Positions 851 through 22,641 of a DNA stretch of 64,000 nt are shown piece after piece; position 1 is the first letter of the stretch, and each line of letters begins with the position of its first letter. The stretch lies in contig NZ_CP041403.1 in assembly GCF_014844135.1 (NCBI RefSeq), positions 744,001-808,000 of the forward strand. Direction: 5' to 3'. The translations under genes were made by a program, and so were the position numbers. This DNA comes from Arcobacter sp. FWKO B (GTDB lineage: Bacteria; Campylobacterota; Campylobacteria; Campylobacterales; Arcobacteraceae). Under the pieces are notes generated by a model, which made no database searches, was not told where the DNA came from, and was given only the letters and a program-made list of their open reading frames with translations.

Positions 851-1022
851 ATCAGTCCTTTTTGAAATTTGGGCAATTTTAGCCAAATATCGTAGCATTA
901 AAGTAGCAATTTTATCTAAAATTGGCTTATAAGTTTATATCATGGTTTTTAATTTGAATAATAATAGAACATTGTATTGTGCTATTTCGTATATAAATTA
1001 TTCCACATAATTTTGAAAACTT

Positions 1023-1169
1023 CTAATATAATAATTCATCAATATCACTTTCACTATGGCTTTTATCCATTGTTTTTGAGCCAAAAAGTGCAAGTTGTGA
1101 GATTTGATATTTTTTTGCAAACTATTTTTTGTTAGTTTTTAGATACTGTAATATTTCTTCATTAATCAT
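1023..1169 (-). pseudogene. Broken MNT-type nucleotidyltransferase fragment
   Basis: Reading the minus strand from an ATG at 1167-1169 gives a short N-terminus, then an in-frame TAG at 1122-1124, then FAKKYQISQLALFGS followed by a SESDID segment and a stop at 1023-1025. LALFGS...SDID is the active-site signature GSx9-12DxD of minimal nucleotidyltransferases (the MNT half of MNT/HEPN pairs). The internal stop and the loss of everything after the DID motif mark it as a remnant. It lies just downstream of the S8 protease gene. The rest of 851-1205 shows nothing further that I recognise. Confidence 0.7.
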
Positions 1170-1205: not shown

Positions 1206-3683
1206 TTAGATTTCTATTTGTACTGGTGTAGCAATTTGTACTTGTACTGGTGTGTATATATCTATATCATTAGATGGAGAATAAATACTCACAATGAGTG
1301 TATATCGAGCTACATTTTCATAAGCTTCTAAATGTTTTCTTGTTCTCCACCATCCATTTGTTGGATAAATGGCAATATAATTACAAGAAGCCAATTCTAC
1401 AGCTTTTCCTTTCCATACATCAGATATTATACTTCCTCTATCTCTTGTATTTTTACCAATTGTCCAATAACCTGAAGTACTTAATCCACTTGGTTCAAAT
1501 TCATCTTCTCTCCCATGTTTATTACATCTTGCCTTAAATTCATCTATGCTTTCATGTGGATGATTGATTTCAAATCTTAATCCATGAGATGGATAGTTAT
1601 ATCTATTAAAATTGCTTACGACCATTTCGGTTGGTGCTGGTTCTATGAAGTATGATAAAGTAACTCTCATTTCTACTTCTTGAGAGCCTAAATCTTCTAA
1701 TGCTTCTTTTGGCCAAGGAAGAGTATAAAGATTCATAACATTTGTTTTTATATCATTCCCAATTTTAATAAATGGCTGAATAGTATCTTCTGCAATCAAA
1801 GTTAAACTATTTGTGTAACAATTCACAGCTTTATCAAAATCAGGTACTCCATAACCACAAGTTCTTAATAGTTTTTTATATACATCTCTATCTGAATCTC
1901 TAGTTTCTTTAAATTGTGCAAACATCTCATCTGTCCACTTAGCTGAGTGTATAACTAATCCTCTAATTGTTTCAGGTGTTGCTTCTGGAAAAGTAGCATA
2001 TAACCTTGCTACAAAATTTGCTCCTAGTGCATTAGCTGCACTTGTTGCATAAGTCCAAGTAATTAAATCTCTATAAATATTTGAATGGGTTGTTAAAAGA
2101 GCTAAATCATCATGAGTAGTTTTATCATTTCTTATTGTATTTAATAAAAGATTTCCTCCCTCAAACACTACATCAGGCTTTATACACCATTGTCTATCCC
2201 ATAAATGAGAAGTTGTAGTAAATGGGGATATTTCATCTTTTTCTGCCATTACTACATCATAACTAGCATAAGTCCCATCTTCATCTGTGATGGTATCTTT
2301 TTGGGTAAAAGCTCCTATAGATAGTGCATTCCAAGATTGAGCTGGATTTTCTATTGGAGATTTAAGATTAGTGTTCTTATATTCAAAAGATGAGTCATCT
2401 ATATCAGTATTTCCTACTGATATACAAAAAAGTTTTTTATAATCATTATTATATAAAATACTATCAATTGCAGATGACCATGAACTTGGTGTTCCATCTA
2501 AAACATCACCATCAGTATCTTTTGCAGTAACAGACATTGAATATACATGAATTTTATTAGGTTTTTCAATTTCTCTAATAGCGACAGCTTGTTCTGTAAT
2601 ATATCCCCATAAACTTTTTTCTGTACTTCCAGTTGGAGGAAGTATTTTAAAAGATGCCAGTGTGTGATTAAGTTCAACATCTTCAATACCACTTAAATGT
2701 TCATTTAAATTCCCATATGCAGCTATTCCACTCATCTCTGTACCGTGACTATCATGGTCATTTATATCCCAAGATGGTAAAAATGTATGTTTATCTTCAT
2801 CTTTTAAGATATCTTCTAATAATGGGTGTACATTATTCACTCCTGTATCTAAAATACATATTGAAACTTTACTATCTGGATTTACAATAATTCTATCTTT
2901 TAGCTCACTTACCCAATCTTTTTGGTCATGATATTCCATACTTGTATAAGCAATATTAGGAGTTGAATATGGTCTAATTTCTGCTAAATATTGATAAGAA
3001 TCAATTAAATTCAAAATATCTTCAGCATTTAATTTTGCTAAAGTTATTATTCTCTCTGGAAATTTTATATTTGATTCTGTTCGAATTTCTATATTGTTGG
3101 TTTGAGTTACATTTATAAACTCTGAAATAACATCTTCATCATGAGTGTTTTTATTATTCATTAACCATACTTCACACCATATTTTAGTTTCACTAGGAAT
3201 TTTATCTTCTTTACCATTCCAAAATGAATTGATAGTCGCAGTTTTAAAATCTTCTATAACCGCAATTAAATCATTATGTTTTGGGTTTCCTTTTTTAGTT
3301 AATTTTTGTATATATTCTTTTATTTTTTTCTCTAAAAAATCTTTTTTTTCTAATGGTAAAAATAGTGTAGCTTTTTGTGGATTCGTATTTTTAAAATTTG
3401 ATAGTCTAATATCTTTTGATGAACTTTCAAGAGGTTCTATATTTAAGTCAATCCCTTCTACCCCTAAGACCTCTATATAAATCCCTTTATTTAAAGATTC
3501 ATTCTCAGATATAAGTTCAGTTTGAGATGTTAAAAGAGATTGTAGCTTTCCATACAGTCTATTTCCATGTTCTGGTGCATTTCTATAAGGTAAGGTTGAA
3601 TCACCTCCACCACTTTGAGGAGAGGTAAATCTTATATCAGTTTTATATTGTTCACCAATAAATAAGGGTCTTAAATCAGGCAT
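1206..3683 (-). CDS. S8 (subtilisin-like) serine protease partnered with an AAA+ ATPase
   Basis: An 825-residue protein with a subtilase domain in its middle. The triad reads Asp279 (CILDTGVN), His313 (DSHGTEMSG) and Ser548 (ATSAANA), with ISVGN as the likely oxyanion-hole Asn. Ser sits in ATSAAN rather than the usual GTSMAxP, a variation common in intracellular large subtilases. There is no signal peptide, so action in the cytosol is inferred. Roughly 230 residues precede the catalytic domain and about 250 follow it; I recognise no domain in either. The start codon is 3 bases after the stop of the ATPase gene, so the two are co-transcribed. Such ATPase-subtilase pairs recur in bacterial accessory islands, and a defence role is plausible but unproven here. 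Confidence 0.85.
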   Translation of the reverse strand: MPDLRPLFIGEQYKTDIRFTSPQSGGGDSTLPYRNAPEHGNRLYGKLQSLLTSQTELISENESLNKGIYIEVLGVEGIDLNIEPLESSSKDIRLSNFKNTNPQKATLFLPLEKKDFLEKKIKEYIQKLTKKGNPKHNDLIAVIEDFKTATINSFWNGKEDKIPSETKIWCEVWLMNNKNTHDEDVISEFINVTQTNNIEIRTESNIKFPERIITLAKLNAEDILNLIDSYQYLAEIRPYSTPNIAYTSMEYHDQKDWVSELKDRIIVNPDSKVSICILDTGVNNVHPLLEDILKDEDKHTFLPSWDINDHDSHGTEMSGIAAYGNLNEHLSGIEDVELNHTLASFKILPPTGSTEKSLWGYITEQAVAIREIEKPNKIHVYSMSVTAKDTDGDVLDGTPSSWSSAIDSILYNNDYKKLFCISVGNTDIDDSSFEYKNTNLKSPIENPAQSWNALSIGAFTQKDTITDEDGTYASYDVVMAEKDEISPFTTTSHLWDRQWCIKPDVVFEGGNLLLNTIRNDKTTHDDLALLTTHSNIYRDLITWTYATSAANALGANFVARLYATFPEATPETIRGLVIHSAKWTDEMFAQFKETRDSDRDVYKKLLRTCGYGVPDFDKAVNCYTNSLTLIAEDTIQPFIKIGNDIKTNVMNLYTLPWPKEALEDLGSQEVEMRVTLSYFIEPAPTEMVVSNFNRYNYPSHGLRFEINHPHESIDEFKARCNKHGREDEFEPSGLSTSGYWTIGKNTRDRGSIISDVWKGKAVELASCNYIAIYPTNGWWRTRKHLEAYENVARYTLIVSIYSPSNDIDIYTPVQVQIATPVQIEI

Positions 3684-3686
3684 ATA

Positions 3687-4673
3687 TTATGCCTCACTAA
3701 TTTTTTTATATGATTCTTTTATGATTTCAAAATTATTTAGTAATGATGTTCTAGAAATATATTTTTTATCGTTGATAATAGCTTCTTTAATTGCATCATT
3801 GCATGATTTTACAATATCTGCATGACTTAATCCTGATGCTTTAGCTAAAACACCATCTAAATCAAATTTAACCGTAAATGCTTGTAACCTTAGTTTTAAA
3901 AGTTTAAGTATTTCTTCTTTTGTTGGTATGTCATAGTATAAAATATCATCAAATCTTCTAAATAAAGCTCTATCTAGTAGTGCTATATTATTTGTGGCTG
4001 TGATTATTAAACTATCAGAGTTATCGTTTTCTAAAAACTGTAAAAATGAGTTTAGTACTCTTCTCATTTCACCAACTTCATTATCTTTACTTCTGTCTGT
4101 ACCTATAGAATCAAATTCATCAAAAAAATAAACACCTTTTTGCATCTCTATCATTTTGAATATTTGTCTAAGTTTTGCACCAGTTTCACCCATAAATTTT
4201 GTAATAATTTTATCTATTTGTATTACATATAAAGGCAAATGAAGCTCTGAAGCTATAATAGAAGCTGACATCGTTTTACCAGTACCAGGATGACCAGATA
4301 ATAAAATTTTTCTTCTATGTTTTAATCCATGCTTTTTTAATTTTTCTTGATTATTATATTCACTTAAAATTTTTACTATTTTATCTTGATTAGAAGTTGA
4401 AAGGATTATTTCAGACATATCTAACATAGGTCTTGAATAAATAAACAACTCATCAATTGTATTATTATACAATCTAACATTCTTCGAATTAATAGATTCG
4501 ACAGTTCTATTCTTTTTTGAGTCATCAACAAGTCTTTTGACTTCTAATGCTAAAGAGCTATGCCCTAATGTGGCTTCATGGGCAGCCAGTTGTAAAGATA
4601 AAGTATCAAATCTAGTATAATCATTGTCATAATGCGACTTTATAAGTGCTTTTATTTGTGATGCATTAGCCAT
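3687..4673 (-). CDS. AAA+ ATPase, partner of the S8 protease
   Basis: The 328-residue protein has a leading helical region and one AAA+ module: Walker A SGHPGTGKT, Walker B VYFFDEFDSIGTDR, sensor-1 ATNN and the arginine-finger segment RALFRRFDD, followed by the small C-terminal lid domain. The motif set is that of classical AAA proteins (FtsH/ClpX-like unfoldases or Vps4/spastin-like). The start at 4671-4673 is chosen because GGAG lies 7 bases upstream; an upstream in-frame ATG at 4718 lacks this. Only 3 bases separate it from the protease gene, so it probably feeds or gates that protease. Function beyond ATPase is inferred. Confidence 0.85.
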   Translation of the reverse strand: MANASQIKALIKSHYDNDYTRFDTLSLQLAAHEATLGHSSLALEVKRLVDDSKKNRTVESINSKNVRLYNNTIDELFIYSRPMLDMSEIILSTSNQDKIVKILSEYNNQEKLKKHGLKHRRKILLSGHPGTGKTMSASIIASELHLPLYVIQIDKIITKFMGETGAKLRQIFKMIEMQKGVYFFDEFDSIGTDRSKDNEVGEMRRVLNSFLQFLENDNSDSLIITATNNIALLDRALFRRFDDILYYDIPTKEEILKLLKLRLQAFTVKFDLDGVLAKASGLSHADIVKSCNDAIKEAIINDKKYISRTSLLNNFEIIKESYKKISEA

Positions 4674-4694
4674 AGACTTTCTCCATATTTGTAA

Positions 4695-4710: not shown

Positions 4711-4878
4711 ACTAACATTAAAATCTTACAATACTTTATTATAAAAATATTTTATTAAAATTCATCATATGTCTTGTTTTAGAAACATTTAATAAATTTA
4801 TACCATTTTATTATGATACCATAGAATGATTAAGATAATATAAAAATTATCAATCACCATCAAAAATAGATTATTATA

Positions 4879-6609
4879 TTATAAGTTTATATCATAATCC
4901 CCTTTTGGCTTTTTGCTACAAACTCTTTTTTCTACTACCATATCCTTTTGCTTTTGTTTTTTGCCCATATCAGTTTCTACAAAAATAGGCTTCAAAGTCC
5001 AAGGATTAAGCCCTGTATAATACATCAAAGTAGAGTATGTACTAGGTGTTGGGGTGAAGATTTGTACTTGTTCTGGGGAGAGTCTTAGCTCTTTATTGGC
5101 AAAATCTTTTAGTTTTTTCATATCTTCTTCCGTGCATCCTGGGTGGGCTGCTATCATGTAGTATGTCAAAAATTGTTTTTTGCCAAGTTGTTTGTTGAGA
5201 TCATCAAATTTTTTCTTGAAAGCTAGCAGAGTATTTTTATCAGGTTTTCCCATAAGTGAGAGGATTTTTTCTTCGCTATGTTCTGGGGCTATTTTCATTT
5301 GACCTGATACATGATGTTCTACTATTTCTTTGAGGTAAACATCTCCATAAATTTTGTCTTGATTTATCAAATCATATCTGATACCAGAGTTTACAAAAAC
5401 TTTTTTGATTCCTTTGATACCTCTTATTTTTCTAAGAAGGTCTATTTGTCTTTTGTGATTTGGTTTGAGGGTTTTACACACACTATCACTTAGGCATCTT
5501 TTTTTATCAGCACAATCACCCTTGCTTAACTTCTTTTCACACTCAAAACCATACATATTGGCAGTTGCTCCACCCACATCGTATATGATACCTTTGAAGT
5601 TTTTGTCTTTGGTAAATTGATTGATTTCTTTTAGAATAGAATCTTCACTTCGGCTTCTTATGGTTCTACCTTGATGTACACTAATAGCACAAAAATTACA
5701 TTCTCCATAACACCCATGATGAGTAGTAACAGAAAACTTGATAGTTTCTAGGGCTTTTATATCACCTTGTTTTTTGTAAAAAGGGTGTACATCTCTTTCG
5801 TAGTTGAGATTATAAACTGCATCTATTTCTGACTCACTCATATAAAATTCTGGTGGGTTTTGTATTAGATATCTACTATCTTGTTTTTGCATAATCCCTT
5901 TTGCAGTTATTGGGTCACAGTTATTGTAGTATGTATGAAAAGCCTTAATAAACTTTAACTTATCTGCTTTTACATCATCAAATGATTCAATTTCTATATA
6001 TCCCTCTTTTGGCTCTTTTGATATATAGCAAAGTCCTCTAATATCTTTAAAGTCTTCCTTGGCATTTAGGCTATTTGCAAGTTTTACGACTGTTTTTTCT
6101 GCCATTCCATATACCAAAATATCAGCTTTTGCATCAAAAAGAAGAGATTTTCGTACATTATTCCCCCAAAAATCATAATGAGCAACCCTTCTAAGACTTG
6201 CTTCAATACCACCTAAGACTATGGGAACTGTATTTTTATAAAATTTCCTAATCAAACCAGTATATACTATACTAGCTCTATCTGGACGGCGGTTATTGAC
6301 TCCATTTGGTGTAAAATCATCATTATTTCTTCTCTTTTTGCTTGCTGTATAATTAGCTACCATACTATCCACTAGCCCTGCACTAACTCCCCAAAAAAGT
6401 CTTGGTTCACCAAGTCTTGTGATATCGTCACTATTTATATCTGGTTGAGCAATAATTCCTACTTTATAGCCCTTATCTAGCAATACTCTACCTATTACAG
6501 ATATTCCACCATATGGTGAGTCTATATAAGTATCTCCACTTACAAGAATAATATCAAGTTGGTTCCAGTCTAGTTGTTCTAATTCTTTTTTTGTTGTAGG
6601 TAAAAACAT
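4879..6609 (-). CDS. ygiQ: YgiQ family radical SAM protein (UPF0313)
   Basis: A 576-residue protein with the N-terminal B12-binding-like/UPF0313 domain (residues about 1-270; LDIILVSGDTYIDSPYGG is characteristic) followed by a radical SAM barrel with the cluster-binding motif CYGECNFCA. The C-terminal DUF3362 extension is present in short form (QVQIFTPTPSTYSTLMYYTG). Its reaction is not established. ATG at the distal end is followed by MFLPTTKKELEQLDWNQLD, the normal family start. Stands alone on the minus strand, divergent from the HDOD gene with 80 bases between them. Confidence 0.9.
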   Translation of the reverse strand: MFLPTTKKELEQLDWNQLDIILVSGDTYIDSPYGGISVIGRVLLDKGYKVGIIAQPDINSDDITRLGEPRLFWGVSAGLVDSMVANYTASKKRRNNDDFTPNGVNNRRPDRASIVYTGLIRKFYKNTVPIVLGGIEASLRRVAHYDFWGNNVRKSLLFDAKADILVYGMAEKTVVKLANSLNAKEDFKDIRGLCYISKEPKEGYIEIESFDDVKADKLKFIKAFHTYYNNCDPITAKGIMQKQDSRYLIQNPPEFYMSESEIDAVYNLNYERDVHPFYKKQGDIKALETIKFSVTTHHGCYGECNFCAISVHQGRTIRSRSEDSILKEINQFTKDKNFKGIIYDVGGATANMYGFECEKKLSKGDCADKKRCLSDSVCKTLKPNHKRQIDLLRKIRGIKGIKKVFVNSGIRYDLINQDKIYGDVYLKEIVEHHVSGQMKIAPEHSEEKILSLMGKPDKNTLLAFKKKFDDLNKQLGKKQFLTYYMIAAHPGCTEEDMKKLKDFANKELRLSPEQVQIFTPTPSTYSTLMYYTGLNPWTLKPIFVETDMGKKQKQKDMVVEKRVCSKKPKGDYDINL

Positions 6610-11400: not shown

Positions 11401-11492
11401 TTAAATATCCGCGATTATACCTAAAATAGACTTAAACTTTTAACCTAAAATATGATAAAATCAATTTTAATTATAGTTAACGGAGTGATAAT

Positions 11493-11780
11493 ATGACAAT
11501 AACAAAAAGAGTAACATTTATAGCAAAAGAGGGTTGTGAAGATAAAATGAAAGAGCTACTATCAGCTATGGTAATCCCAAGCAAAGCTGAAGAGGGGTGT
11601 ATATTTTATGAGATTTTTCAATATGAAAATAATAGAAGAAAATTTATGGCGGTAGAGACTTGGGCTGATGAAAAAGCACTAGATGGTCACAAAGCTTCAG
11701 CTCATTACGCCGTATATAAATCAAGCTATGAGCCTTACTGTGAAGATAAATACACAGATGAATTGGAAGTTCTTGGATGA
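11493..11780 (+). CDS. ABM-family monooxygenase-fold protein (YgiN/LsrG-like)
   Basis: A 95-residue single-domain protein of the antibiotic biosynthesis monooxygenase (dimeric ferredoxin-like) family: VTFIAKEGCEDKMKELL, then EEGCIFYEIFQ, FMAVETWADEKALDGHKASAHY. LsrG, the phospho-AI-2 isomerase, and YgiN, a quinol monooxygenase, both belong to this family and are of this size. The nearby AI-2 kinase gene makes an LsrG-like role attractive but not demonstrated; sequence alone does not decide. Preceded by CGGAG and overlaps the aldolase start by 4 bases (ATGA), so the two are translationally coupled. Confidence 0.75.
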   Translation: MTITKRVTFIAKEGCEDKMKELLSAMVIPSKAEEGCIFYEIFQYENNRRKFMAVETWADEKALDGHKASAHYAVYKSSYEPYCEDKYTDELEVLG

Positions 11781-12952
11781 GAAATCTTTGGGATGCTAAT
11801 GAGGCAAAAGAGTTTGAAGGTGATTTGGGCTTAAGAGTATATACATCCAATTTACTTGGCAAAAGTGATGAGCTTGTACTTCACGGTGGAGGAAATACAT
11901 CTGTAAAAAGTGTGGTTGATGGAGAAGATATACTTTTCGTAAAAGGAAGTGGCTGGGATTTGGTGAGTATCAAGGCGGAGGGTTTTGCACCTGTAAAACT
12001 AGACGCTTTGAAAAATATGGCGACTTTTGAGGTCTTAAGCGATAGCGATATGGTAAGACTTCAAAAAGAGGCAATGATAGATAAATCTGCTCCAAATCCA
12101 TCGGTTGAAGCGATACTTCATGCAATAATTCCTTACAAATTCGTAGATCACACCCACGCTGATGCCATGGTAACCATATCAAACAGCACAAACGGGGAAG
12201 ATTTGATAAGAGCAATCTATCCAAATTTTTTGATTATCCCTTATGTGATGCCTGGATTTATTTTGGCAAAAACTATATATGAAATGACTCAAAATTTCGA
12301 CTGGGAAAAATGTGATGGTATAGTGCTTCTAAATCACGGTATTTTTACTTTCGATGATGACGGCAAAAAGTCATATGATAAAATGATAAAAGAGGTAAAC
12401 AAAGCCGAAAAGTTTTTGGCTCAAAAAGCTCCTTTGGTAATAGAAAAATACTATCCAAGGGGTATGGTCGATATAGAGAGCCTTGTATCAATACTATCAA
12501 AAGAAAAAGGGTATGAAATAGCTATCAATGTCAACCAATCCCCACTAGCCCTTCACTATGCAAGTATGAGAAGTTTAAGAGAAAAAGCATGTAGAGGCGT
12601 CCTTACACCTGAACATATCATCAGAACAAAAAGAACTCCTATGATACTCGAAAATTCGGACATCCAAAAAGCAGTCGATGAGTATAAAACATCTTACATA
12701 GAGTATTTTAACTCATTTGCAAAAGATGAAATAATGCTAAACCCTGCTCCTAATTATGTAGTAGTCAAAGATTTTGGAGTGATAAGTATAGGCAAAACAC
12801 AAAAAGAAGCAGACATAATCAACGACATAATAACTCATACTATGGGTGCAGTTTTGAGAGCTGATATGCTCGGTGGATATGAAAGTATAAGTATGAAAGA
12901 TAGTTTTGATATGGAGTATTGGGAGTTGGAACAGGTGAAGCTTAGGAAGTAG
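11777..12952 (+). CDS. Class II aldolase/adducin family protein
   Basis: 391 residues. Motifs for the zinc class II aldolase fold are ELVLHGGGNTSVK (substrate phosphate loop), VEAILHAIIPYKFVDHTHADAM with the HTHAD metal ligands, and VLLNHGIFTFDDDG with the third histidine. Length and layout resemble the aldolase half of the long bifunctional rhamnulose-1-phosphate aldolase/dehydrogenases; no dehydrogenase domain follows. Coupled to the ABM gene upstream; lsrK lies 6 kb downstream across the defence block. A role in breaking down a phosphorylated C5 or C6 sugar derivative is inferred, and the substrate is unknown. Confidence 0.8.
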   Translation: MRNLWDANEAKEFEGDLGLRVYTSNLLGKSDELVLHGGGNTSVKSVVDGEDILFVKGSGWDLVSIKAEGFAPVKLDALKNMATFEVLSDSDMVRLQKEAMIDKSAPNPSVEAILHAIIPYKFVDHTHADAMVTISNSTNGEDLIRAIYPNFLIIPYVMPGFILAKTIYEMTQNFDWEKCDGIVLLNHGIFTFDDDGKKSYDKMIKEVNKAEKFLAQKAPLVIEKYYPRGMVDIESLVSILSKEKGYEIAINVNQSPLALHYASMRSLREKACRGVLTPEHIIRTKRTPMILENSDIQKAVDEYKTSYIEYFNSFAKDEIMLNPAPNYVVVKDFGVISIGKTQKEADIINDIITHTMGAVLRADMLGGYESISMKDSFDMEYWELEQVKLRK

Positions 12953-13021
12953 AGGATTATAGGTGACATATGTAACTTTTATATTTATATATAAATAACT
13001 TCAATAATATTATGGTACAAT

Positions 13022-13083
13022 TGAAAACTGTAAATAGGATATATAATCCAAGTCACCCAATATAATAAAGTGAAAACTGTAAA
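13022..13083. repeat. Two 13-bp direct repeats ahead of the Detocs-like operon
   Basis: TGAAAACTGTAAA occurs at 13022-13034 and again at 13071-13083, 49 bases apart start to start, in the leader of the kinase gene. The second copy ends 4 bases before the AAGG ribosome site. They could be operators or simply a short duplication; nothing else in the window shows the motif to my reading. Confidence 0.5.
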
Positions 13084-13097
13084 CATAAGGTACTCAA

Positions 13098-16000
13098 TTG
13101 GCTAAAAGAAAGAAATTAAATTCAAATTCTGAGCAAAAGAATTTTTTTTTAAACATAGCAAAACTAAAAAATCCAATTAGGATTACAAAATATTTAAAGG
13201 AAAATGCACCAAAACACTTAGTTGAGAATAATTTTTCAAAGCTTATATCACATCCATTAATGAAAAATAATATTTTAGGTTCAACATTTCCAATTAATTA
13301 TAAAGATATTGAAACTGAAGTAATAGTTTCTCAAGGAACTTTGGAACAAGAAGTATGGTGGACTTATCTTAATGTTATATATCATTATGAAAAAATAAAT
13401 TTTTTTATATATAAATCTGAACAATTCAATAATTTATTACTTTATGCTAAGTATGAAGATGCTTCAAATATATTAAATGAAATAAAATATGAGTTAGGTT
13501 TATCACATTGGTATATAGAAAATAAGCTTTTATTATTATCTAAAATGAATGGATTGAAGGAACAAAAAGAGTACGCAGAAACAATTAAAAAAGAGTTACC
13601 AGATGCTTCTGCTTTATTAGTATATCACTTTAGTCAAAAACTTGAAAATGAATTATCATATGAACAATATGATAAAAACTTTAAAAAAATGTGGAGAGAT
13701 TATCCTAATATAAAAACTTATTTTGAGTTTAAAGTCAATTCATTAAATGCTGCTCCTGAAAATCTTGTATATTTCTTATATTTTGAAAGAGAAAGTCCTA
13801 CTATTGATAAATATATTAGTTTGAAAAAAGCTTTATTTGCAATTTGCTCTAATAATAATTATTACAATCTACCAGTTGACTTTTTAAATAAATATCTAAT
13901 TAAACTAGATAATAAAATCAAAGATATTGAATTAAAACCATTATTAATAAAAAGTACAAAATTAAATTATAATGATATAAATATAGACAATAACAAATAT
14001 ATCAGAATACTAGATTTATATACAATGGGACATTACAAAGAGTCTTATGATTTGTGTTTAAAAGAACTTGAAAATTATTTAACATTCAATATTAATCTTA
14101 TTGAAATATTAATCAAATCAGAAATAAGATATGCGGTAGATGATAGTTTCATAGAATTACCAATTAATAAAAATTCTATCATATTTAACATATATGAATA
14201 TTACAAGAGTATCATTTTAAAAGATCAAAATTTAATAAACTCTATTAATAAACTCTTAAAGATAGCACTAGAACTTTCTTCTTTATCAATATCAACTATG
14301 ATAACTCAATTTATATATAAAAATGTTCCATTTTACAATATACCTGTAGCAGATTCAAGTCTTAACACAGGAGGCTTACATACATTTTTATATGATGTCC
14401 GAGAACAATCAATAATCGATGATGCTAGATATCGAATATTGATAACTGATATGCAAAAAACTTATCAAGAATCTATTACATATCAATTATTAAATAAAAA
14501 AAACTTTAATATTGATAAAAAAATTCCATCATTTCGATTACAAAAATATACTATAAAAATAAACCCTGAAACAATTCCAAAAGAACAGCAGATAGAAATT
14601 TACAAAGGCATTATTAAAAATGGAAATATTTTAGATAAATATTATGCAATCGTTGAATTATCATATTTATACTTTAAATATAAAGAAATTCAAAACTGTA
14701 TAAAAGCTATTGTGGAGGGATATTTATTTAACAAGTCTCTAATCTATAATTTACCTTTACAAGAGATAATAGAATATATAGAACAATACCATTCTACTGA
14801 CTTTGACAAAGATATTGAAACACCTATTTTGTATGAGCTGTATAGTAAATATATCTCAAATAAATTTGATTCTCAAAAAATGATCCGATATGAGGTTTTT
14901 TTAGAGGAAAATGGCTATACAAAGCCCAGTGAACTTATTAATAACTATGAAAGATTCGATAAAAATAAATTAGATTTTTTTCTCCAGTTCAACTGTAAGA
15001 GTCAAATATTGGATTCATCAATATATTTTGAAAATACTGAAGAAGTGGAGTCCGAAAGGATTAATATTTGTCAATTTCTAGTAGAACAAAAAGTAAGTTC
15101 CAGCCATATCTTATTAAAAGAAATAAAGAATATAACAGAGCAGTCTTTAATATCAAAATATATACAAGTAATTGAGCAAAATAAAATATATGTGAATGAA
15201 GAAGGCATTAAGTCTAAATTACAATCTAATTTAGCTGAATACTATTTAAGGTATATTGATTTGGTAAAAAATTCTACTACTTTAAAAAGAGATTTAAATA
15301 ATAAGGTCTTTTTTAATAATGCATTTGGAGTGAATATCCCATATCCAAAAAATGATATTATTCCCTTATTACAAAATGCTCTAAGTGATGTTAAAGAATA
15401 CTTTGTTCTTAGTAATGAATATGGATTAAATGGCTTTATAAGCACAAATATTAGACATGGGAAATTATATAATTTTTTAACAAGTTCATTGATTAAATCT
15501 AATTTATTTATAAAACCAAATGATGATTATTGGCAAAAAAACTTTCAAATAGATGTTCAAATAAGTCATATTTTGACTAACTTTTCGAATGACATTGATA
15601 AATCAATCAATGATTTCAAAGACCAATACATCCAAGTAGTCACTGAAAAAGAAAATACTAAAAATGGATTATTTAAATACAACTTAACGGATGAAATATG
15701 TATAGCGATATACAATCAATTAGATGAAGAACCATCCTATGAAGAATTTGAAAATAAATTATTTGAAGTTTTATGGCTTCAAACAGAAAAAAACCTAGAA
15801 GATATTAGAAGTAAAATATCTAACGAGCTTATCAAAAACATTAAGCTTATATTTGAAAATTTAAATATACAAATTGAAAGTATTGATAATAAATACAACT
15901 TATCAAATATTCGCGATATTATAAGACATGAATCTACGATACTACAAAGAAACTTAGAGACATTAAAACAATGGTTCACTAGACAGACAATATCTAGTAT

Positions 16001-16496
16001 AGCTGACTTTGAATTTACATTGCCAGTAAGTATTACAAAAGAAGTTATTAAAAATGTTCATGCTAACAATTTTATAAAATTAAACGCTGATATTAAGATC
16101 AAAGATAAATTTAAAGGATTATTTCTAAAAGGGTTTGTTGATATTTTGTATATATTGTTTGACAATGCAATAAAACACAGCGATAGTGAATGTGAGGAAA
16201 TCAATTTATTATTAGATAAATCGAATAAAAAACAATATGAATATAGACTTTATGTCGCTAATCAAATAAAAGAAAATTTAAATATTGAATTAAATACTCA
16301 AAAAATAGAAGAAATCAGAGATAATATACGAAATAAAATGTATGGACAAAGTGTAGGAACTGAGGGTGGTACAGGTTTTTATAAAATTGTAAAAATATTA
16401 ACCTATGATATGGTTATGGGTAATAGATTCATTGACTTTTATTATCATGGTGACAAATTTATTGTTGAAATACACTTTGGAAAGAATAAGGAATAA
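13098..16496 (+). CDS. dtcA: Large sensor histidine kinase of a Detocs-like defence operon (DtcA-like)
   Basis: An 1132-residue protein beginning at TTG 13098, chosen because AAGG lies 7 bases upstream and no ATG occurs nearby. About 900 N-terminal residues are helix-rich with no signal peptide or membrane span that I see, consistent with a cytosolic TPR-like sensor. The last 190 residues form a kinase core: a His-box-like helix with IIRHE (His944), an N-box LFDNAIKHS (Asn1023) and the G-box GTEGGTGF (residues 1087-1094). In Detocs, a large kinase of this kind detects phage infection and phosphorylates the two following receivers. Strikingly AT-rich compared with the aldolase and lsrK on either side, suggesting transfer. 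The name rests on operon architecture. Confidence 0.75.
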   Translation: MAKRKKLNSNSEQKNFFLNIAKLKNPIRITKYLKENAPKHLVENNFSKLISHPLMKNNILGSTFPINYKDIETEVIVSQGTLEQEVWWTYLNVIYHYEKINFFIYKSEQFNNLLLYAKYEDASNILNEIKYELGLSHWYIENKLLLLSKMNGLKEQKEYAETIKKELPDASALLVYHFSQKLENELSYEQYDKNFKKMWRDYPNIKTYFEFKVNSLNAAPENLVYFLYFERESPTIDKYISLKKALFAICSNNNYYNLPVDFLNKYLIKLDNKIKDIELKPLLIKSTKLNYNDINIDNNKYIRILDLYTMGHYKESYDLCLKELENYLTFNINLIEILIKSEIRYAVDDSFIELPINKNSIIFNIYEYYKSIILKDQNLINSINKLLKIALELSSLSISTMITQFIYKNVPFYNIPVADSSLNTGGLHTFLYDVREQSIIDDARYRILITDMQKTYQESITYQLLNKKNFNIDKKIPSFRLQKYTIKINPETIPKEQQIEIYKGIIKNGNILDKYYAIVELSYLYFKYKEIQNCIKAIVEGYLFNKSLIYNLPLQEIIEYIEQYHSTDFDKDIETPILYELYSKYISNKFDSQKMIRYEVFLEENGYTKPSELINNYERFDKNKLDFFLQFNCKSQILDSSIYFENTEEVESERINICQFLVEQKVSSSHILLKEIKNITEQSLISKYIQVIEQNKIYVNEEGIKSKLQSNLAEYYLRYIDLVKNSTTLKRDLNNKVFFNNAFGVNIPYPKNDIIPLLQNALSDVKEYFVLSNEYGLNGFISTNIRHGKLYNFLTSSLIKSNLFIKPNDDYWQKNFQIDVQISHILTNFSNDIDKSINDFKDQYIQVVTEKENTKNGLFKYNLTDEICIAIYNQLDEEPSYEEFENKLFEVLWLQTEKNLEDIRSKISNELIKNIKLIFENLNIQIESIDNKYNLSNIRDIIRHESTILQRNLETLKQWFTRQTISSIADFEFTLPVSITKEVIKNVHANNFIKLNADIKIKDKFKGLFLKGFVDILYILFDNAIKHSDSECEEINLLLDKSNKKQYEYRLYVANQIKENLNIELNTQKIEEIRDNIRNKMYGQSVGTEGGTGFYKIVKILTYDMVMGNRFIDFYYHGDKFIVEIHFGKNKE

Positions 16497-16498
16497 CT

Positions 16499-16957
16499 AT
16501 GCAATGTTTAATAATTGAAGATGACAACTATAAATCTGAACATTTACAAAATATTTTACAAGAATATTTTGACTTGTCTGTAGAAATAAAAACAGCATAT
16601 AAATCAGGTTTGATTGAAGCCCTAAAACCAAAGTATGACTTTATCTTACTTGATATGAGTATGCTTACATTTGATATATCCTCACAAGAAAAAGGTGGAA
16701 GACCTAGACATTTTGCAGGGAAAGAAATTATGTTACAAATGAAACGAAGAAATGTACTTACTCCAGTAATTATTATTACACAATTTGAGAACTTTGGAGA
16801 AGATACTGAAAAAATCAACCTAATTGATTTAACTAAGCAGTTAAAAGATATTGGATATCAAGGATATAAAAAAACAATATTTTACAATATGACAAAAAAT
16901 GAATGGCAAGATGAATTAATAGAAACTATTTGTTCTATACAAGGGGATAAAAAATGA
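16499..16957 (+). CDS. dtcB: Stand-alone receiver protein (DtcB-like)
   Basis: 152 residues forming one response-regulator receiver domain with no output domain. Visible elements are the acidic pair in LIIEDDN, phospho-acceptor Asp52 (FILLDMS), Thr94 (IIITQF) and the late Lys133 in MTKNEW. An insertion after Asp52 (SSQEKGGRPRHFAG) lengthens the usual loop. In Detocs the second gene is a bare receiver that drains phosphate from the kinase and prevents accidental activation; that role is assigned by analogy. Starts 2 bases after the kinase stop and overlaps the next gene by 4 bases (ATGA), so translation is coupled. Confidence 0.8.
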   Translation: MQCLIIEDDNYKSEHLQNILQEYFDLSVEIKTAYKSGLIEALKPKYDFILLDMSMLTFDISSQEKGGRPRHFAGKEIMLQMKRRNVLTPVIIITQFENFGEDTEKINLIDLTKQLKDIGYQGYKKTIFYNMTKNEWQDELIETICSIQGDKK

Positions 16958-18168
16958 AGATATTATTTATTGAAGATAATGAATTAAAAAAAGAAAAAAT
17001 TATAACAGTTTTAATAAATGCTAATGTCGCTGTTCAAAGTGATTTCACTGTATGCACTAATATAATTGATGCAAAAAAAATACTCAGAAGTACAATGTTT
17101 GATGTTCTATTATTAGATATGCGATTGCCCAATAGAGCTGATAGTCAGGAAATTCAATCTATGGCTGGTTTGGACTTTTTAAAAGAATTTCAAAATGATA
17201 GAAGATATCACCAACCAAAAGAGATTATTGGTATTACAGAATGTGAAGAGGAACTAAGTAGGGTTAAAAAAGATTTCCATGAAAATCTTTTACATATAAT
17301 TTATTATCATCCATCTAAAAATGAATGGGAAAAATTATTAATAGATAGACTTGAATATCTTATTTCTTGCGAACAAGATACAAATGATTATGATTATGAT
17401 ATTGCTATAATATGTGCACTTGAAAACCCAGAATTTAAAGCTATTAAGGACTTATCTAAAAATTGGGTTAATGTAAAAAAAGACAATACTGCATTGTCTT
17501 TTTATGAAACTTTTTTTGAGTTTGAACAAAAAAAATTAAAAGTAATTGCTATCTCTATTGATAAAATGGGAATGGTACCAACCGCAGTATTAGCCACTCA
17601 AACAATCGAAATGTTTCGACCAAGATATCTGACCATGACAGGAATAGCAGCTGGAATTAAAGGTGAAGTAGAATTAGGTGATATTCTTGTTTTTAATCCT
17701 AGTTGGGATTCTGGTTCTGGTAAATTAAAAATCGATGACAATGGTAAAGAACTTTTTGAAATTGATCCAAAACAAGAAACAATTGATGGTGATATAATTT
17801 TGAACATCAAAACACTATCAAGTGATACACAATTTCTAAATAAATTAAGAGAAGATTGGAAATACAGTAAAATCAAACATGTTTTGTCTGTCCATACTGG
17901 TCCAGTTGCATCTGGTGCGGCAGTAATAGCAAATGAAAACATTACTGGTGCAATAAAATTACAATCTAGAAAACTTATTGGTATAGAAATGGAAGCTTAC
18001 GGGCTTATATATGCTGCAAAACATGCAACAAAGCCTAAACCTGAACCTTTGGTTATAAAGTCTGTATGTGACTTTGCTGATAAAGATAAGAATGATGGAT
18101 ATCAAGAATATGCGGCATATACAAGTGCAAATTTTTTATATGAGTATGCTAAAAGATATATTAAATGA
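16954..18168 (+). CDS. dtcC: Receiver-nucleoside phosphorylase fusion, probable ATP nucleosidase effector (DtcC-like)
   Basis: 404 residues. Residues 1-135 are a receiver (LFIEDNE, phospho-acceptor Asp55 in LLLDMRLP, Thr95, Lys122). From about 150 onward is a PNP/MTAN-type domain: DIAIICALENPEF, TGIAAGIKGEVELGDILV, VHTGPVASGAAVI, IGIEMEAYG (Glu345, Met346, Glu347) and SVCDFADK (Asp373), the ribose-binding and catalytic acid positions of the family. In Detocs the third protein has this same fusion and, once phosphorylated, cleaves ATP to adenine and ribose-5'-triphosphate to stop phage growth. Nucleoside salvage would not need a receiver, so a regulated effector is the best reading. Last gene of the operon. 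Confidence 0.8.
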   Translation: MKILFIEDNELKKEKIITVLINANVAVQSDFTVCTNIIDAKKILRSTMFDVLLLDMRLPNRADSQEIQSMAGLDFLKEFQNDRRYHQPKEIIGITECEEELSRVKKDFHENLLHIIYYHPSKNEWEKLLIDRLEYLISCEQDTNDYDYDIAIICALENPEFKAIKDLSKNWVNVKKDNTALSFYETFFEFEQKKLKVIAISIDKMGMVPTAVLATQTIEMFRPRYLTMTGIAAGIKGEVELGDILVFNPSWDSGSGKLKIDDNGKELFEIDPKQETIDGDIILNIKTLSSDTQFLNKLREDWKYSKIKHVLSVHTGPVASGAAVIANENITGAIKLQSRKLIGIEMEAYGLIYAAKHATKPKPEPLVIKSVCDFADKDKNDGYQEYAAYTSANFLYEYAKRYIK

Positions 18169-18320
18169 TAAAAATACATTATGGGAAAAACTTGATAAAT
18201 GCAAAAAGAAATAAAAGATTTCATTTCTTGAGTAAATTATACATACTTTTATAACTTAATCAAAACTTTATAACACTTAAGATAAAATAGTTTTAAAGTT
18301 TAAATAGGAAGGGTAAAATC

Positions 18321-18554
18321 ATGCAAAGATTGATAGTAGATGTCGAAGATAAATATATAAATCTTGTTGTGGGTTTGTTATCTAATCTAAAACAAAATGT
18401 AGTTAAAAATATAACTATACAAAATGAACAAAGTAAAAATATATCAAAATTAGATACATTTCGTAAATTAAGAGAAAAATCAAATAATAAAAATAAATTA
18501 ACTATGGCAATAGCAACAAATACTGATGAGATGGTAAGCGATGGCATATTTTGA
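18321..18554 (+). CDS. Probable antitoxin of a PIN-domain toxin-antitoxin pair
   Basis: A 77-residue protein rich in lysine and asparagine, starting MQRLIVDVEDKYINLVVGLLSNLKQNVVKNI. Short size, a beta strand-then-helix beginning of the type used by AbrB/Phd-like or DUF-type antitoxins, and a 14-base overlap with the downstream PIN gene support the antitoxin call. The DNA-binding class is not evident. GGAAGG stands about 8 bases upstream of the ATG. A likely role is to bind and silence the toxin and repress the operon. Confidence 0.65.
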   Translation: MQRLIVDVEDKYINLVVGLLSNLKQNVVKNITIQNEQSKNISKLDTFRKLREKSNNKNKLTMAIATNTDEMVSDGIF

Positions 18555-18948
18555 TACCAATGTATTGATTTATGCTTTTACTAAAAACACTGATGATAGT
18601 AAGCAAAAAGATGTTTCAATAAAACTAATAGAAGAAGCAATCCAAAATGATACCTTGATTGTATCAGAAGTAGTGCTGTGTGAATTTGCGTTTATCTCAA
18701 ATAAAATAAATGAATACAAAAATGACATTGATAATAATCTAGAATTTTTAGCTACTTTTTTACAACCATCACATCCTCATATAACCCAACGGATGATAGA
18801 AATATTAAAAGAAACCAATTTGTACATGAGTTCATTTGATGTGTATCATTTGGCTTTTGCTGAGTATTATAATTCAAAACTCTATACATTTGATAATGGT
18901 TTTAAAAAACTCCAAAATATTTCAAAAATTGAACTTGTGATAAAATAG
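18541..18948 (+). CDS. PIN-domain ribonuclease toxin (VapC-like)
   Basis: 135 residues forming a PIN domain. The four acidic metal-binding positions are Asp5 (AYFDTNVLIY), Glu48 (LCEFAF), Asp100 (SSFDVYHLAFA) and Asp118 (TFDNGF). PIN toxins cleave RNA, often tRNA or rRNA, when freed from the antitoxin. Overlaps the upstream antitoxin gene. It sits directly after the Detocs-like operon, forming one accessory block between the aldolase and lsrK. Confidence 0.85.
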   Translation: MAYFDTNVLIYAFTKNTDDSKQKDVSIKLIEEAIQNDTLIVSEVVLCEFAFISNKINEYKNDIDNNLEFLATFLQPSHPHITQRMIEILKETNLYMSSFDVYHLAFAEYYNSKLYTFDNGFKKLQNISKIELVIK

Positions 18949-18978
18949 TATCCCACTAAAGATCAAAGGAACCAACAC

Positions 18979-20541
18979 ATGAAATACCTTTTAGCCATAG
19001 ATGCAGGAACAGGAAGTATAAGAGCTGTTCTTTTTGATACTTTGGGGAATCAAATCACATATTCTCAAAAAGAGTGGACACACAAAAGTGAAGATGGTGT
19101 GCCAAATAGTATGAGTTTTGATTGTGTTACTAACTGGGAACTTACAAAAGAGTGTATCAAAGATGTCTTAGATAGCTCAAAGGTAAATCCTGATGATATA
19201 CTCTCTCTTAGTGCTACAAGTATGCGTGAGGGGATAGTTCTTTATGATGAAAAAGGTAATGAGCTTTGGGCTGTGGCAAATGTAGATGCAAGGGCAGATA
19301 AAGAGGTAAGGTTCCTAAAAGAAAACTTTCCTACTATGGAAGAGGAATTTTATAGTATTTCTGGGCAGACTTTTGCACTTGGGGCATTGCCACGGATTCT
19401 TTGGCTCAAAAACAACCACCCAGATGTTTATGCTAAGGTTGCAAATATCTCTATGATAGGTGACTGGGTATTATACAAACTAAGCAACATAATAGCTACA
19501 GACCCAAGCAACGGCGGAACTACTGGGATATTTAGCTTGAAAGAGAGAACTTGGGATAGCTCTATGGCTTCAAAAGTGGGTATAAAAGATGATATTTTTT
19601 GCCCTTGCTATGAGGTAGGCTCTGTAATAGGTAGCGTCTCAAATGAAGCTTCAAAAGAGACAGGTCTAAGTACCAAAACAAAAGTAGTCACGGGTGGCGG
19701 TGATGTTCAGCTAGGAAGTGCTGGGCTTGGAGTGGTGGGTGATGGACAAGTGGCAGTTCTTGGTGGGAGTTTTTGGCAACAAATTGTAAATATACCATCC
19801 CTCACACCTCCACCAAAAAACATGGATATAAGAGTCAACCCTCATGTTATAGATGGACTTTCTCAAGCTGAAGGGATTACATTTTTTAGCGGTCTTGTTA
19901 TGAGATGGTTTAGGGATGCTTTTTGTGACCTTGAAAAACTAGAAGCTTCACAAAAAGGTCTGGATACATATTCAATACTTGAAGAAAAAGCCTCATCCGT
20001 CCCAGTTGGCTCATACGGAATACTCCCTATATTTAGCGATAGTATGAAATATGGCAAATGGTATCATGCAGGTCCATCTTTTATCAATCTTTCCATAGAC
20101 CCAGATATTTGCAATAAATACTCGATGTTTAAAAGTTTACAAGAAAATGCGTGTATCGTATCAAATATAAATCTCAAAAAAATAAAAGAATTTTCTGGTA
20201 TTAGCATAGAGAAAATAGTATTTGCAGGAGGGGCTAGTAAAGGAAATCTTTGGTGTCAAACTCTAAGTGATGTCACAGGATGTGTGGTAAAAGTGCCAAA
20301 GATTACAGAAGCTACAGCTTTGGGAGCTGCTATGAGTGCAGGAGTGGGAGCTGGAGTTTATAAATCTATACAAGATGCTTCATCAAAGCTTGTAAAATGG
20401 GATAAAACATACTCTCCAAATATGGATAATCATAAACTATATCAAGCCATAGAGCAAAAATGGATTGAAGTTTACGAAGAGCAATTAAAGCTTGTAGATA
20501 ACGGGCTTGTGTCATCTATGTGGAAAGCACCTGGGGTTTGA
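18979..20541 (+). CDS. lsrK: Autoinducer-2 kinase
   Basis: A 520-residue FGGY-family sugar kinase closely resembling enteric LsrK, including IDAGTGSIRAVLFD (phosphate-1 loop), SMREGIVLY, ANVDARA, TGGGDVQLG (catalytic Asp), VLGGSFWQQ, RVNPHVI, TMRWFRDAF-like VMRWFRDAF, FAGGASKGNLW and a WKAPG end. LsrK phosphorylates AI-2 (DPD) in the cytosol, producing phospho-AI-2. No lsrACDBF transporter or lsrR repressor is adjacent. AAAGGA precedes the ATG. Higher GC than the block just upstream. I regard the family call as firm; use of AI-2 in this organism is inferred. Confidence 0.92.
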   Translation: MKYLLAIDAGTGSIRAVLFDTLGNQITYSQKEWTHKSEDGVPNSMSFDCVTNWELTKECIKDVLDSSKVNPDDILSLSATSMREGIVLYDEKGNELWAVANVDARADKEVRFLKENFPTMEEEFYSISGQTFALGALPRILWLKNNHPDVYAKVANISMIGDWVLYKLSNIIATDPSNGGTTGIFSLKERTWDSSMASKVGIKDDIFCPCYEVGSVIGSVSNEASKETGLSTKTKVVTGGGDVQLGSAGLGVVGDGQVAVLGGSFWQQIVNIPSLTPPPKNMDIRVNPHVIDGLSQAEGITFFSGLVMRWFRDAFCDLEKLEASQKGLDTYSILEEKASSVPVGSYGILPIFSDSMKYGKWYHAGPSFINLSIDPDICNKYSMFKSLQENACIVSNINLKKIKEFSGISIEKIVFAGGASKGNLWCQTLSDVTGCVVKVPKITEATALGAAMSAGVGAGVYKSIQDASSKLVKWDKTYSPNMDNHKLYQAIEQKWIEVYEEQLKLVDNGLVSSMWKAPGV

Positions 20542-20604
20542 TTTAGGTTGTTGGTTTTAATGTGTAGGTGGTAGGTTTTGGTTTTCTAAATCTTTAGTTG
20601 AAGA

Positions 20605-20626
20605 ACCAGTCAAAGACTGGTGTTCC
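20605..20626. repeat. Palindromic intergenic repeat, copy 2 (CCAGTC..GACTGG + GTTCC)
   Basis: CCAGTCAAAGACTGGTGTTCC lies between the convergent ends of lsrK and the Cache histidine kinase. The 6-bp stem closes a 3-base loop. It belongs to the same family as the copies at 223-243 and 25926-26224. Confidence 0.65.
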
Positions 20627-20636
20627 AGCTTACCCC

Positions 20637-22553
20637 TCAAACCTTCTCCAAAGGTAAAGAAATCTTAAAAACTGCCCCCTTATCGCTATTGTAAGCTTCT
20701 ATATCTCCACCCATATTTTTTAATATCTGCTTAGTCATATATAGCCCTATTCCTGTACCTTTTTCACCTTTTGTGGTAAAATCTGAGTCAAAAATTCTAT
20801 TAATATACTCTTTTGGAATTCCACCTGCATTGTCTTCTATTTTTATAATAGCAAATTTATCATTACTTGATATCTCTATTTCAATTATTTTATTGTCTAT
20901 TTTTTTCTCAACAAGCACATCTTTAGCATTATTTAAAATATTTAAAATAGCTTGTATTAACTCATTTGGATAACCATCTACTTTTAGATTTTTTTGAGAT
21001 TCAAGATTTATGGATATACCATTAAATGTCCCTTCAGTAATTTTCAAACTTTTTTCTACAGTAGAAATCAAATCAAAATTTTGAAGCACTTTATCTTTTC
21101 TTAAAAACCCTCTAAAATCTTCAATTGTTTGTGATAAATGTTGAGCACTTGAAACTATCTTGTCAGCAGTTTTTTCTATATCACCATCATCTAAAACTCC
21201 AAGTTCTTTTTGTATTTTTAATCCACTAGCTAAAGATGTTATAGCACTTAGAGGTTGTCTCCATTGATGGGCTATATTATCAAGCATTTCTCCCATGGAT
21301 GCCATTTTTGACTGTTGAATGATAAGATTATCTTTATGTTTTTGTTTTTTCTCATTTGAAAGAATAATATTATTTAAATATTTTGCTACTATTATCAAAA
21401 TAATAATAAATAAAAAAAGTATCACAAAAGTAAATACAATACTATCTCTAATAATACGGCTTTTTTCCTCATTTTCGACTTTAAATAATGTTTGATATTT
21501 ATCTTCAAAATCATTTACATAAACCCCATTACCAATAATCCAATTCCATTTTTCATTGAGATAAAAGTAGCTCAATTTTTCTTCTATCTCATCTGTATTT
21601 GGTTTTTTATAGGCATATGTTACAAAAGAATCACCCTTTAACCTTATATCTTTTAAAAACTCTTTTCTAAATTCTTTGCCATTAATATCTTTATAATCAT
21701 CTGATATAAATTTTCCTTCCAAATCAACTCTGTTCATATTAACAAGCATTTTGGCAAATTTATCACCTCCGTTAATATCAAGCAATTGGTATATAAAAAC
21801 ATAATTATTATCTACATAAGCCATATTTCTAATTTGTTTTATAACTAAATTTTGTAACTCTTTTTCAACATCATCTAAATACTCCCCATACCCAATAACC
21901 CAATTGTAAGGTTCAAATACCTTGACATAAGAAGTTTTTGGGTACTGTTCTTTTATGCCATGATTTAATTTAAACCACATATACTCTACAAAGCCCTCTT
22001 TATGTTCTTGTGCAATATTATAAAACTCTTTTACATATTCTTTATTGTTTATATCAACCACATCAGCTCTATTTGTACCCTCTTTATCTGGAGTAGTAGG
22101 CAAAAGCCTTGCTATTATTTTATCTTGTGAATATAACTCTTGAATAAAATAATAAACATCTGTTGTTACATCTGCATAAGTATTGGTAAATTTAATATTT
22201 CTAAGCGTTTCAATTATAGTTTTTTGAATCTCTGCTTTACTCATAGTATCTTTATTGATTTCATAAATAGATGTAGCTATTTTATGGGCAAATTCAACCC
22301 TTTTTATTAGCCTCTCTTCAAGCGTTTTTTTAACAATCTTAGTGTTATAATCTATAATATTATTTATTGTTTTAACATTATGAGTGATAATTTCTTTTTG
22401 GGATAATATATATTTATTTCTTTCAAGCTGTTTATATTCTTCAAAATATTGTTTAGAATTTTCTACATTCAAATAAGCAAGCAAAGATGATAAAAGAATT
22501 AGAACGATGGAAAAATATATAATAATTTTTTTTAAATAAGAATATGTATTCAC
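20637..22553 (-). CDS. Double-Cache sensor histidine kinase
   Basis: 638 residues. An N-terminal membrane span (residues about 8-28) leads into a large periplasmic region with two Cache-like repeats (NWVIGYGEYLDDVEKEL and NWIIGNGVYVNDFEDKY), then a second span (about 370-395), a HisKA-type dimerisation helix with IAHQWRQPLSAI (phospho-acceptor His429) and a HATPase domain (N-box NILNNAKDVL, G-boxes DNAGGIP and GTGIGLYM). Double-Cache domains bind small ligands such as organic acids or amino acids. No response-regulator gene is adjacent, so the partner is unknown. Converges with lsrK. Confidence 0.9.
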   Translation of the reverse strand: MNTYSYLKKIIIYFSIVLILLSSLLAYLNVENSKQYFEEYKQLERNKYILSQKEIITHNVKTINNIIDYNTKIVKKTLEERLIKRVEFAHKIATSIYEINKDTMSKAEIQKTIIETLRNIKFTNTYADVTTDVYYFIQELYSQDKIIARLLPTTPDKEGTNRADVVDINNKEYVKEFYNIAQEHKEGFVEYMWFKLNHGIKEQYPKTSYVKVFEPYNWVIGYGEYLDDVEKELQNLVIKQIRNMAYVDNNYVFIYQLLDINGGDKFAKMLVNMNRVDLEGKFISDDYKDINGKEFRKEFLKDIRLKGDSFVTYAYKKPNTDEIEEKLSYFYLNEKWNWIIGNGVYVNDFEDKYQTLFKVENEEKSRIIRDSIVFTFVILFLFIIILIIVAKYLNNIILSNEKKQKHKDNLIIQQSKMASMGEMLDNIAHQWRQPLSAITSLASGLKIQKELGVLDDGDIEKTADKIVSSAQHLSQTIEDFRGFLRKDKVLQNFDLISTVEKSLKITEGTFNGISINLESQKNLKVDGYPNELIQAILNILNNAKDVLVEKKIDNKIIEIEISSNDKFAIIKIEDNAGGIPKEYINRIFDSDFTTKGEKGTGIGLYMTKQILKNMGGDIEAYNSDKGAVFKISLPLEKV

Positions 22554-22641
22554 TAGAGAAGAACCTTTTTATTTTAATAGTAATCTGGAGATATTATAAC
22601 ATAATTATTACATTTTTTATACTATTTAATACAAAAATATA

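What the first reader, a model, noticed from the sequence alone, without database searches (positions are those of the whole stretch)
1206..4673. AAA+ ATPase plus S8 protease unit, candidate conflict system
A cytosolic 825-residue subtilase with an intact triad (Asp279, His313, Ser548) and 230- and 250-residue unclassified flanks is coupled (3-base gap) to an AAA+ ATPase. It is flanked by a broken MNT gene and sits between two otherwise conserved housekeeping genes. The layout suggests regulated proteolysis of a cellular or phage target. I know of no assigned function.
Basis: partly seen in the sequence, partly recalled or inferred. Interest (0 to 1): 0.6.

Follow-up and report, generated by a model that had tools for sequence, protein, structure and literature searches.

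The report
Known IetAS protease defence pair, recently inserted
This is a divergent copy of an already described two-gene bacterial system, in which a protein-cutting enzyme is held in check by a partner ATPase and which protects cells against viruses; here it sits as a clean, recent insertion between two ordinary genes, so it is mostly ordinary.

Summary
An 825-aa subtilase (3683-1206, minus strand; Asp279/His313/Ser548) lies 3 bases downstream of a 328-aa AAA+ ATPase (4673-3687), between adenylate kinase and a YgiQ-type radical-SAM gene, next to a broken MNT gene. The claim of no assigned function is wrong. PADLOC models name both proteins: IetS (1.4e-41) and IetA (7.9e-70), the IetAS toxin-antitoxin and anti-phage pair. 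Both score far below NCBIfam's cut-offs for the tested orthologues, so this is a divergent member. IetA directly precedes IetS in all 52 viral contigs where it could be seen. Triad and oxyanion residues are invariant in 45 homologues. An AlphaFold model (pLDDT 86) shows a KP-43-like catalytic plus C-terminal domain (Z 26.5) and a propeptide-like topology in the N-terminal flank. New here: the unit is a 3.95-kb insertion. Two same-genus genomes keep the empty adk-ygiQ junction, and the insert is bordered by an exact 17-bp direct repeat found nowhere else in the genome. The best relative sits beside Tn7-like transposase and restriction-modification genes. Most likely an IetA-restrained protease that stops growth when released during phage attack; trigger and substrates are unknown. 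Low novelty.

The parts
3687..4673 (-). ietA-like gene: AAA+ ATPase, 328 aa; restraining partner (antitoxin role in characterised homologues)
   Evidence: PADLOC IetA 7.9e-70; Pfam AAA 5.5e-29; NCBIfam IteA_antiphage 195.6 bits, cut-off 510 not met; conserved start and motifs
1206..3683 (-). ietS-like gene: S8 subtilase, 825 aa; effector (toxin role in characterised homologues)
   Evidence: PADLOC IetS 1.4e-41; Pfam Peptidase_S8 8e-54; triad and oxyanion Asn invariant in 45 homologues; AlphaFold model pLDDT 86.4
2847..2849 (-). codon of catalytic Asp279
   Evidence: computed from the start codon at 3683; invariant in 45 of 45
2745..2747 (-). codon of catalytic His313
   Evidence: computed from the start codon at 3683; invariant in 45 of 45
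2040..2042 (-). codon of catalytic Ser548
   Evidence: computed from the start codon at 3683; invariant in 45 of 45
1022..1168 (-). remnant of an MNT nucleotidyltransferase gene (N-terminal fragment with an internal TAG), inside the insertion
   Evidence: Pfam Polbeta 9e-5; no second copy in the genome
927..943 (.). left copy of the 17-bp direct repeat TTATAAGTTTATATCAT bordering the insertion
4879..4895 (.). right copy of the 17-bp direct repeat; also the last codons and stop of the ygiQ-type gene
   Evidence: present once in the empty site of G299

Best explanation
The pair is a divergent IetAS system that arrived by horizontal transfer as a 3.95-kb insertion between adk and ygiQ. IetS is a cytosolic subtilase that would harm the cell if free. 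IetA, a single-ring AAA+ ATPase made from the same operon, keeps it inactive. When a phage interferes with the cell (a replication-linked cue is the best lead from work on homologues), IetA lets go or actively remodels IetS, and the protease cuts host and/or phage proteins, stopping growth before the phage finishes. The domain with propeptide-like topology next to the catalytic domain may be the part IetA acts on. Shown here: intact genes, active-site conservation, obligate pairing, family assignment, insertion. Shown elsewhere for homologues: toxicity of S neutralised by A, and links to phage resistance. Inferred: trigger, release mechanism, substrates, and that this copy is functional.
For: PADLOC IetS and IetA hits. 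IetA is immediately upstream in 52 of 56 viral loci, and the other four IetS ORFs begin within about 360 bases of the locus edge. The same order is annotated on plasmids. Active residues are invariant. Occurrence is patchy: 4 of 298 class genomes and 4 of 397 phylum genomes (samples that overlap), own genome included. The empty site and 17-bp repeat show mobility. Homologue contexts are Tn7-like plus R-M genes and Type I R-M genes. Literature: SgiT toxic and SgiA neutralising (PMC5006074); T133/A132 likewise in E. coli (PMC8562856); activation by phage replication machinery (PMC10732053); association with phage resistance in a Pf-phage study (PMC11878078).
Against: No experiment on this copy or a close relative is known to me. 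Scores are far below the NCBIfam cut-offs for tested orthologues. The same two genes were first described as stabilising plasmids and islands, so anti-phage action may not be the main selected role. The comparison of defence neighbours was small and not decisive.
Confidence: 0.8

Rival explanations
1. The pair is mainly an addiction module: it keeps the mobile DNA that carries it in the cell by post-segregational killing (short-lived IetA, lasting IetS), with phage defence at most a by-product.
For: Homologues were first described this way and SgiAT promotes SGI1 maintenance (PMC5006074); 341 of 488 plasmid records with a homologue are predicted conjugative.
Against: This copy is chromosomal with no recognisable mobility gene inside the insert, and its MNT neighbour has decayed while both ietAS genes stay open. 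SgiAT did not give post-segregational killing under its own promoter (PMC5006074). Pf-phage-borne IetAS is associated with phage resistance (PMC11878078).
Confidence: 0.13
2. An ordinary protein quality-control or processing unit: the ATPase unfolds and the subtilase degrades, FtsH- or proteasome-like, with no conflict role.
For: IetA scores against CDC48/PAN/FtsH-type AAA domains; the AAA+ plus protease pairing resembles such machines.
Against: Patchy presence and insertion at a site that is empty in congeners; carriage on plasmids and viruses; toxicity of homologues.
Confidence: 0.04
3. A degenerate or silent copy left by an old insertion, like the MNT fragment beside it.
For: The adjacent MNT gene is broken.
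Against: Both ORFs are full length with every invariant catalytic residue. IetA is 92% identical to that of G127, and the 17-bp border repeat is still perfect, so the insertion is recent or maintained.
Confidence: 0.03

Closest known systems
IetAS (pTiC58 toxin-antitoxin pair; PADLOC IetA/IetS; NCBIfam IteA/IteS anti-phage)
   Same: Two adjacent genes, ATPase first, AAA+ plus full-length S8 subtilase of about 800 aa; both proteins match PADLOC models of this family.
   Different: Divergent: 64.8 and 195.6 bits against NCBIfam cut-offs of 900 and 510. Chromosomal insertion between adk and ygiQ with a 17-bp direct repeat.
SgiAT of Salmonella Genomic Island 1 (PMC5006074)
   Same: Same two-gene design; shown in E. 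coli to be toxin (S8) and antitoxin (AAA+). Its own identity to IetS is only 36%, so functional members differ about as much as this copy does from its plasmid homologues.
   Different: Carried by an integrative mobilisable island; not compared residue by residue here.
Mycoplasma TA132/3 (A132/T133, PMC8562856)
   Same: Chromosomal AAA-ATPase/subtilase pair, toxin neutralised by the ATPase; also reported to have flanking direct repeats.
   Different: From a different phylum; repeat sequence and length not compared.
KP-43/SubHal subtilases (PDB 1wmd, 5fax)
   Same: Catalytic plus C-terminal domain superposes: Z 26.5, rmsd 2.9 over 375 residues, model 271-800.
   Different: Secreted alkaline proteases without an AAA+ partner.

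Membership tests
IetAS (broad family as in PADLOC) | AAA+ ATPase gene directly followed by an S8 subtilase gene on the same strand | tested here: met
   Window 4673-3687 and 3683-1206 with a 3-base gap; same order in 52 viral loci and on plasmids.
IetAS (broad family as in PADLOC) | Both proteins match the family's profile models | tested here: met
   IetS PDLC02198 1.4e-41; IetA PDLC02196 7.9e-70.
IetAS (broad family as in PADLOC) | Intact subtilase triad and intact AAA+ motifs | tested here: met
   D279, H313, N425, S548 invariant in 45; Walker A/B, N228, R239/R240 invariant in 32.
IetAS (broad family as in PADLOC) | S toxic alone and neutralised by A | not testable with these tools
   Shown for homologues only (PMC5006074, PMC8562856).
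IetAS (broad family as in PADLOC) | Protection against phage | not testable with these tools
   Reported for homologues.
NCBIfam equivalogs IteS_antiphage / IteA_antiphage (orthologues of the tested system) | Score above the curated cut-offs (900 and 510 bits) | tested here: not met
   64.8 and 195.6 bits; so it is filed in the broad family, not as an orthologue of the tested system.
MNT-HEPN toxin-antitoxin | Intact MNT gene with a HEPN partner | tested here: not met
   Only a 48-codon MNT fragment with an internal stop, no partner gene in the insert.
FtsH/proteasome-like quality-control machine | Conserved across relatives in a fixed housekeeping context | tested here: not met
   4 of 397 phylum genomes; empty site in congeners.

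The most novel reading that the evidence does not exclude
IetAS pairs move as small stand-alone cassettes by a site-specific process that leaves a perfect direct repeat (17 bp here, at the 3' end of ygiQ), driven by a recombinase supplied in trans, so that defence genes can hop without a recognisable mobile element.
Probability: 0.12. Interest if true: 0.45.

Novelty: new member of a known kind. Interest (0 to 1): 0.2.

Why it matters
IetAS is known, but its trigger, substrates and mechanism are still open (PMC11878078 calls the mechanism unknown). This copy adds a clear insertion with both the filled and the empty site, and the alignment and model give testable points: the catalytic triad, a domain of propeptide-like topology in the N-terminal flank, and the most diverged stretch of the protease between two otherwise similar copies. 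It also shows that a pair which looks like an unassigned conflict unit can be placed by profile search.

Tried and rejected
A 3-sequence AlphaFold run failed (pLDDT 35.6) and was replaced by a 45-sequence one. PDB sequence search with IetS alone found nothing; a family profile found only generic subtilases. Pfam on the N-terminal slice (residues 160-246) found no inhibitor-I9 family, so the propeptide-like reading rests on topology and on Foldseek hits to pro-form subtilases (3afg, 9ues, 3qfh, 3whi), several of them with large global rmsd. No close fold was listed for the first part of the N-terminal flank, but that part was barely tested. The 3-row family search of genome contigs returned one locus because its peptide patterns were narrow; this is a limit of sensitivity, not of occurrence. 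PADLOC on neighbours gave restriction-modification hits near IetAS and mostly UvrD-type (GajB) and mad2/mad3 hits, probably housekeeping, in control regions, but the sample is too small for an enrichment claim. The idea of a recombined IetS was looked at: identity to G127 falls to about 64-76% in residues 301-450 while silent sites there are not uniformly lower, so selection and recombination could not be told apart. Ti-plasmid DNA was not fetched; family models and papers were used instead.

Full report
What is there. The window holds two intact minus-strand genes: an AAA+ ATPase (3687-4673, 328 aa; the tool's longer start at 4718 is not shared by homologues) and, 3 bases downstream, an S8 subtilase (1206-3683, 825 aa). 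The MNT gene beside them is a short fragment with an internal stop. The genes outside are adenylate kinase and a YgiQ-type radical-SAM protein.

Identity. PADLOC profiles call the subtilase IetS (1.4e-41) and the ATPase IetA (7.9e-70). NCBIfam's best specific models are the anti-phage peptidase and ATPase of the same system, at 64.8 and 195.6 bits, far below their cut-offs of 900 and 510. It is therefore a divergent family member, not an orthologue of the tested pair. Divergence is normal here: SGI1's SgiT, a working toxin, is 36% identical to IetS (PMC5006074), and the window protein is 29-42% identical to its homologues other than G127's.

The pair is obligate. A scan of viral contigs with a 9-row family alignment found 56 loci. 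In 52 of them an IetA gene directly precedes IetS, usually within about 25 bases or overlapping; in the other four the IetS ORF begins 3-363 bases from the edge of the fetched DNA, too near to show a full IetA gene. Plasmids carry 488 records with a match, and the four read in detail have the same order. The catalytic Asp, His, Ser and the oxyanion Asn are invariant in 45 proteins; Walker motifs, sensor 1 and two arginines are invariant in 32 IetA proteins.

Structure. With 45 sequences AlphaFold gave pLDDT 86.4 and pTM 0.76. Residues 271-800 superpose on the subtilase KP-43 with its C-terminal domain (Z 26.5, rmsd 2.9, 375 residues). Just before the catalytic domain the model shows strand 168-175, helix 182-195, strands 199-207 and 211-218, helix 220-229 and strand 233-238. 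This is the beta-alpha-beta-beta-alpha-beta order of subtilase propeptides, and several of Foldseek's top hits are pro-form subtilases. No sequence match to the I9 inhibitor family was found, so this is a topology-based suggestion. The first ~160 residues remain unassigned.

It is an insertion. In two genomes of the same genus, adk and ygiQ are adjacent: window 943 joins window 4879 within 16 bases in G299, and G300 has the same short junction. Several other genomes of the family also keep adk next to ygiQ. The 3.95-kb insert in the window is bordered by an exact 17-bp direct repeat, TTATAAGTTTATATCAT (927-943 and 4879-4895). It occurs nowhere else in the 2.24-Mb genome without mismatch and is present once in the G299 empty site. 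In about 3000 random pairs of 40-base stretches from this window the longest shared run was 13 bases. The right copy is the end of the ygiQ gene. The most economical reading is a target duplication or recombination-site duplication; no recombinase lies in the insert. The MNT fragment came with the insert or entered it later.

Surroundings of relatives. G127, in the same family but another genus, has the closest pair (IetA 92%, IetS 83%). There it lies directly after TnsA, TnsB-like, TniB and TniQ genes, with a cytosine methyltransferase upstream and a type IIG restriction enzyme and a tyrosine recombinase downstream. Nucleotide similarity to the window begins and ends at the two genes themselves (window 1209-4674). 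In G119 the pair follows Type I restriction-modification genes, and in G263 an hsdM-like fragment follows it (read from the translations). In viral contig L036 it lies between a tail-assembly-like and a tape-measure-like gene. In the phylum sample it is rare: 4 of 397 genomes, own included. These contexts fit mobile defence or addiction cargo and not housekeeping. A small PADLOC comparison of neighbours against control regions was in the same direction but too small to count as enrichment.

How it most likely works. For homologues, S alone kills E. coli and A neutralises it (PMC5006074; PMC8562856), phage replication components are reported as triggers (PMC10732053), and a Pf-phage-borne pair is associated with phage resistance (PMC11878078). 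The best-supported model is a latent protease restrained by its ATPase and released during infection to stop growth. The release step, the substrates and the activity of this copy are inferred. Gao et al. 2020, where the anti-phage role was reported, is recalled from memory; it is not held in the library.

Verdict. What is added is the family assignment, the clean filled and empty site with a 17-bp repeat, and domain readings for the flanks.

Noticed in passing
window 13098-18168 (+): A second, separate candidate defence unit: a 1132-aa protein, a 152-aa response-regulator-like protein and a 404-aa protein with a phosphorylase-superfamily domain (PF01048). PADLOC PDC-M60 models hit the window (PDC-M60C at 1.3e-119 on the last gene). 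From memory this is the layout of Detocs. G300 lacks the stretch 11437-22730 that contains it.
   Followed up: partly
L029:3226-7824: TnsA, TnsB-like, TniB and TniQ genes directly upstream of the closest IetAS relative, suggesting IetAS can be cargo of a Tn7-like transposon.
   Followed up: partly
L036:6102-9626: IetAS between a tail-assembly-like gene and a tape-measure-like gene of a viral contig, a moron-like position.
   Followed up: no
window 1206-3683, residues about 301-450: The two closest IetS proteins (window and G127) are most different in part of the catalytic domain (64-76% identity against about 90% or more over most of the N-terminal half), a possible sign of changing specificity.
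   Followed up: partly
window 48151-50067 (-): A 638-aa protein rich in ankyrin repeats; its PADLOC hits (PDC-M72A, Ankyrin) probably reflect the repeats only.
   Followed up: no
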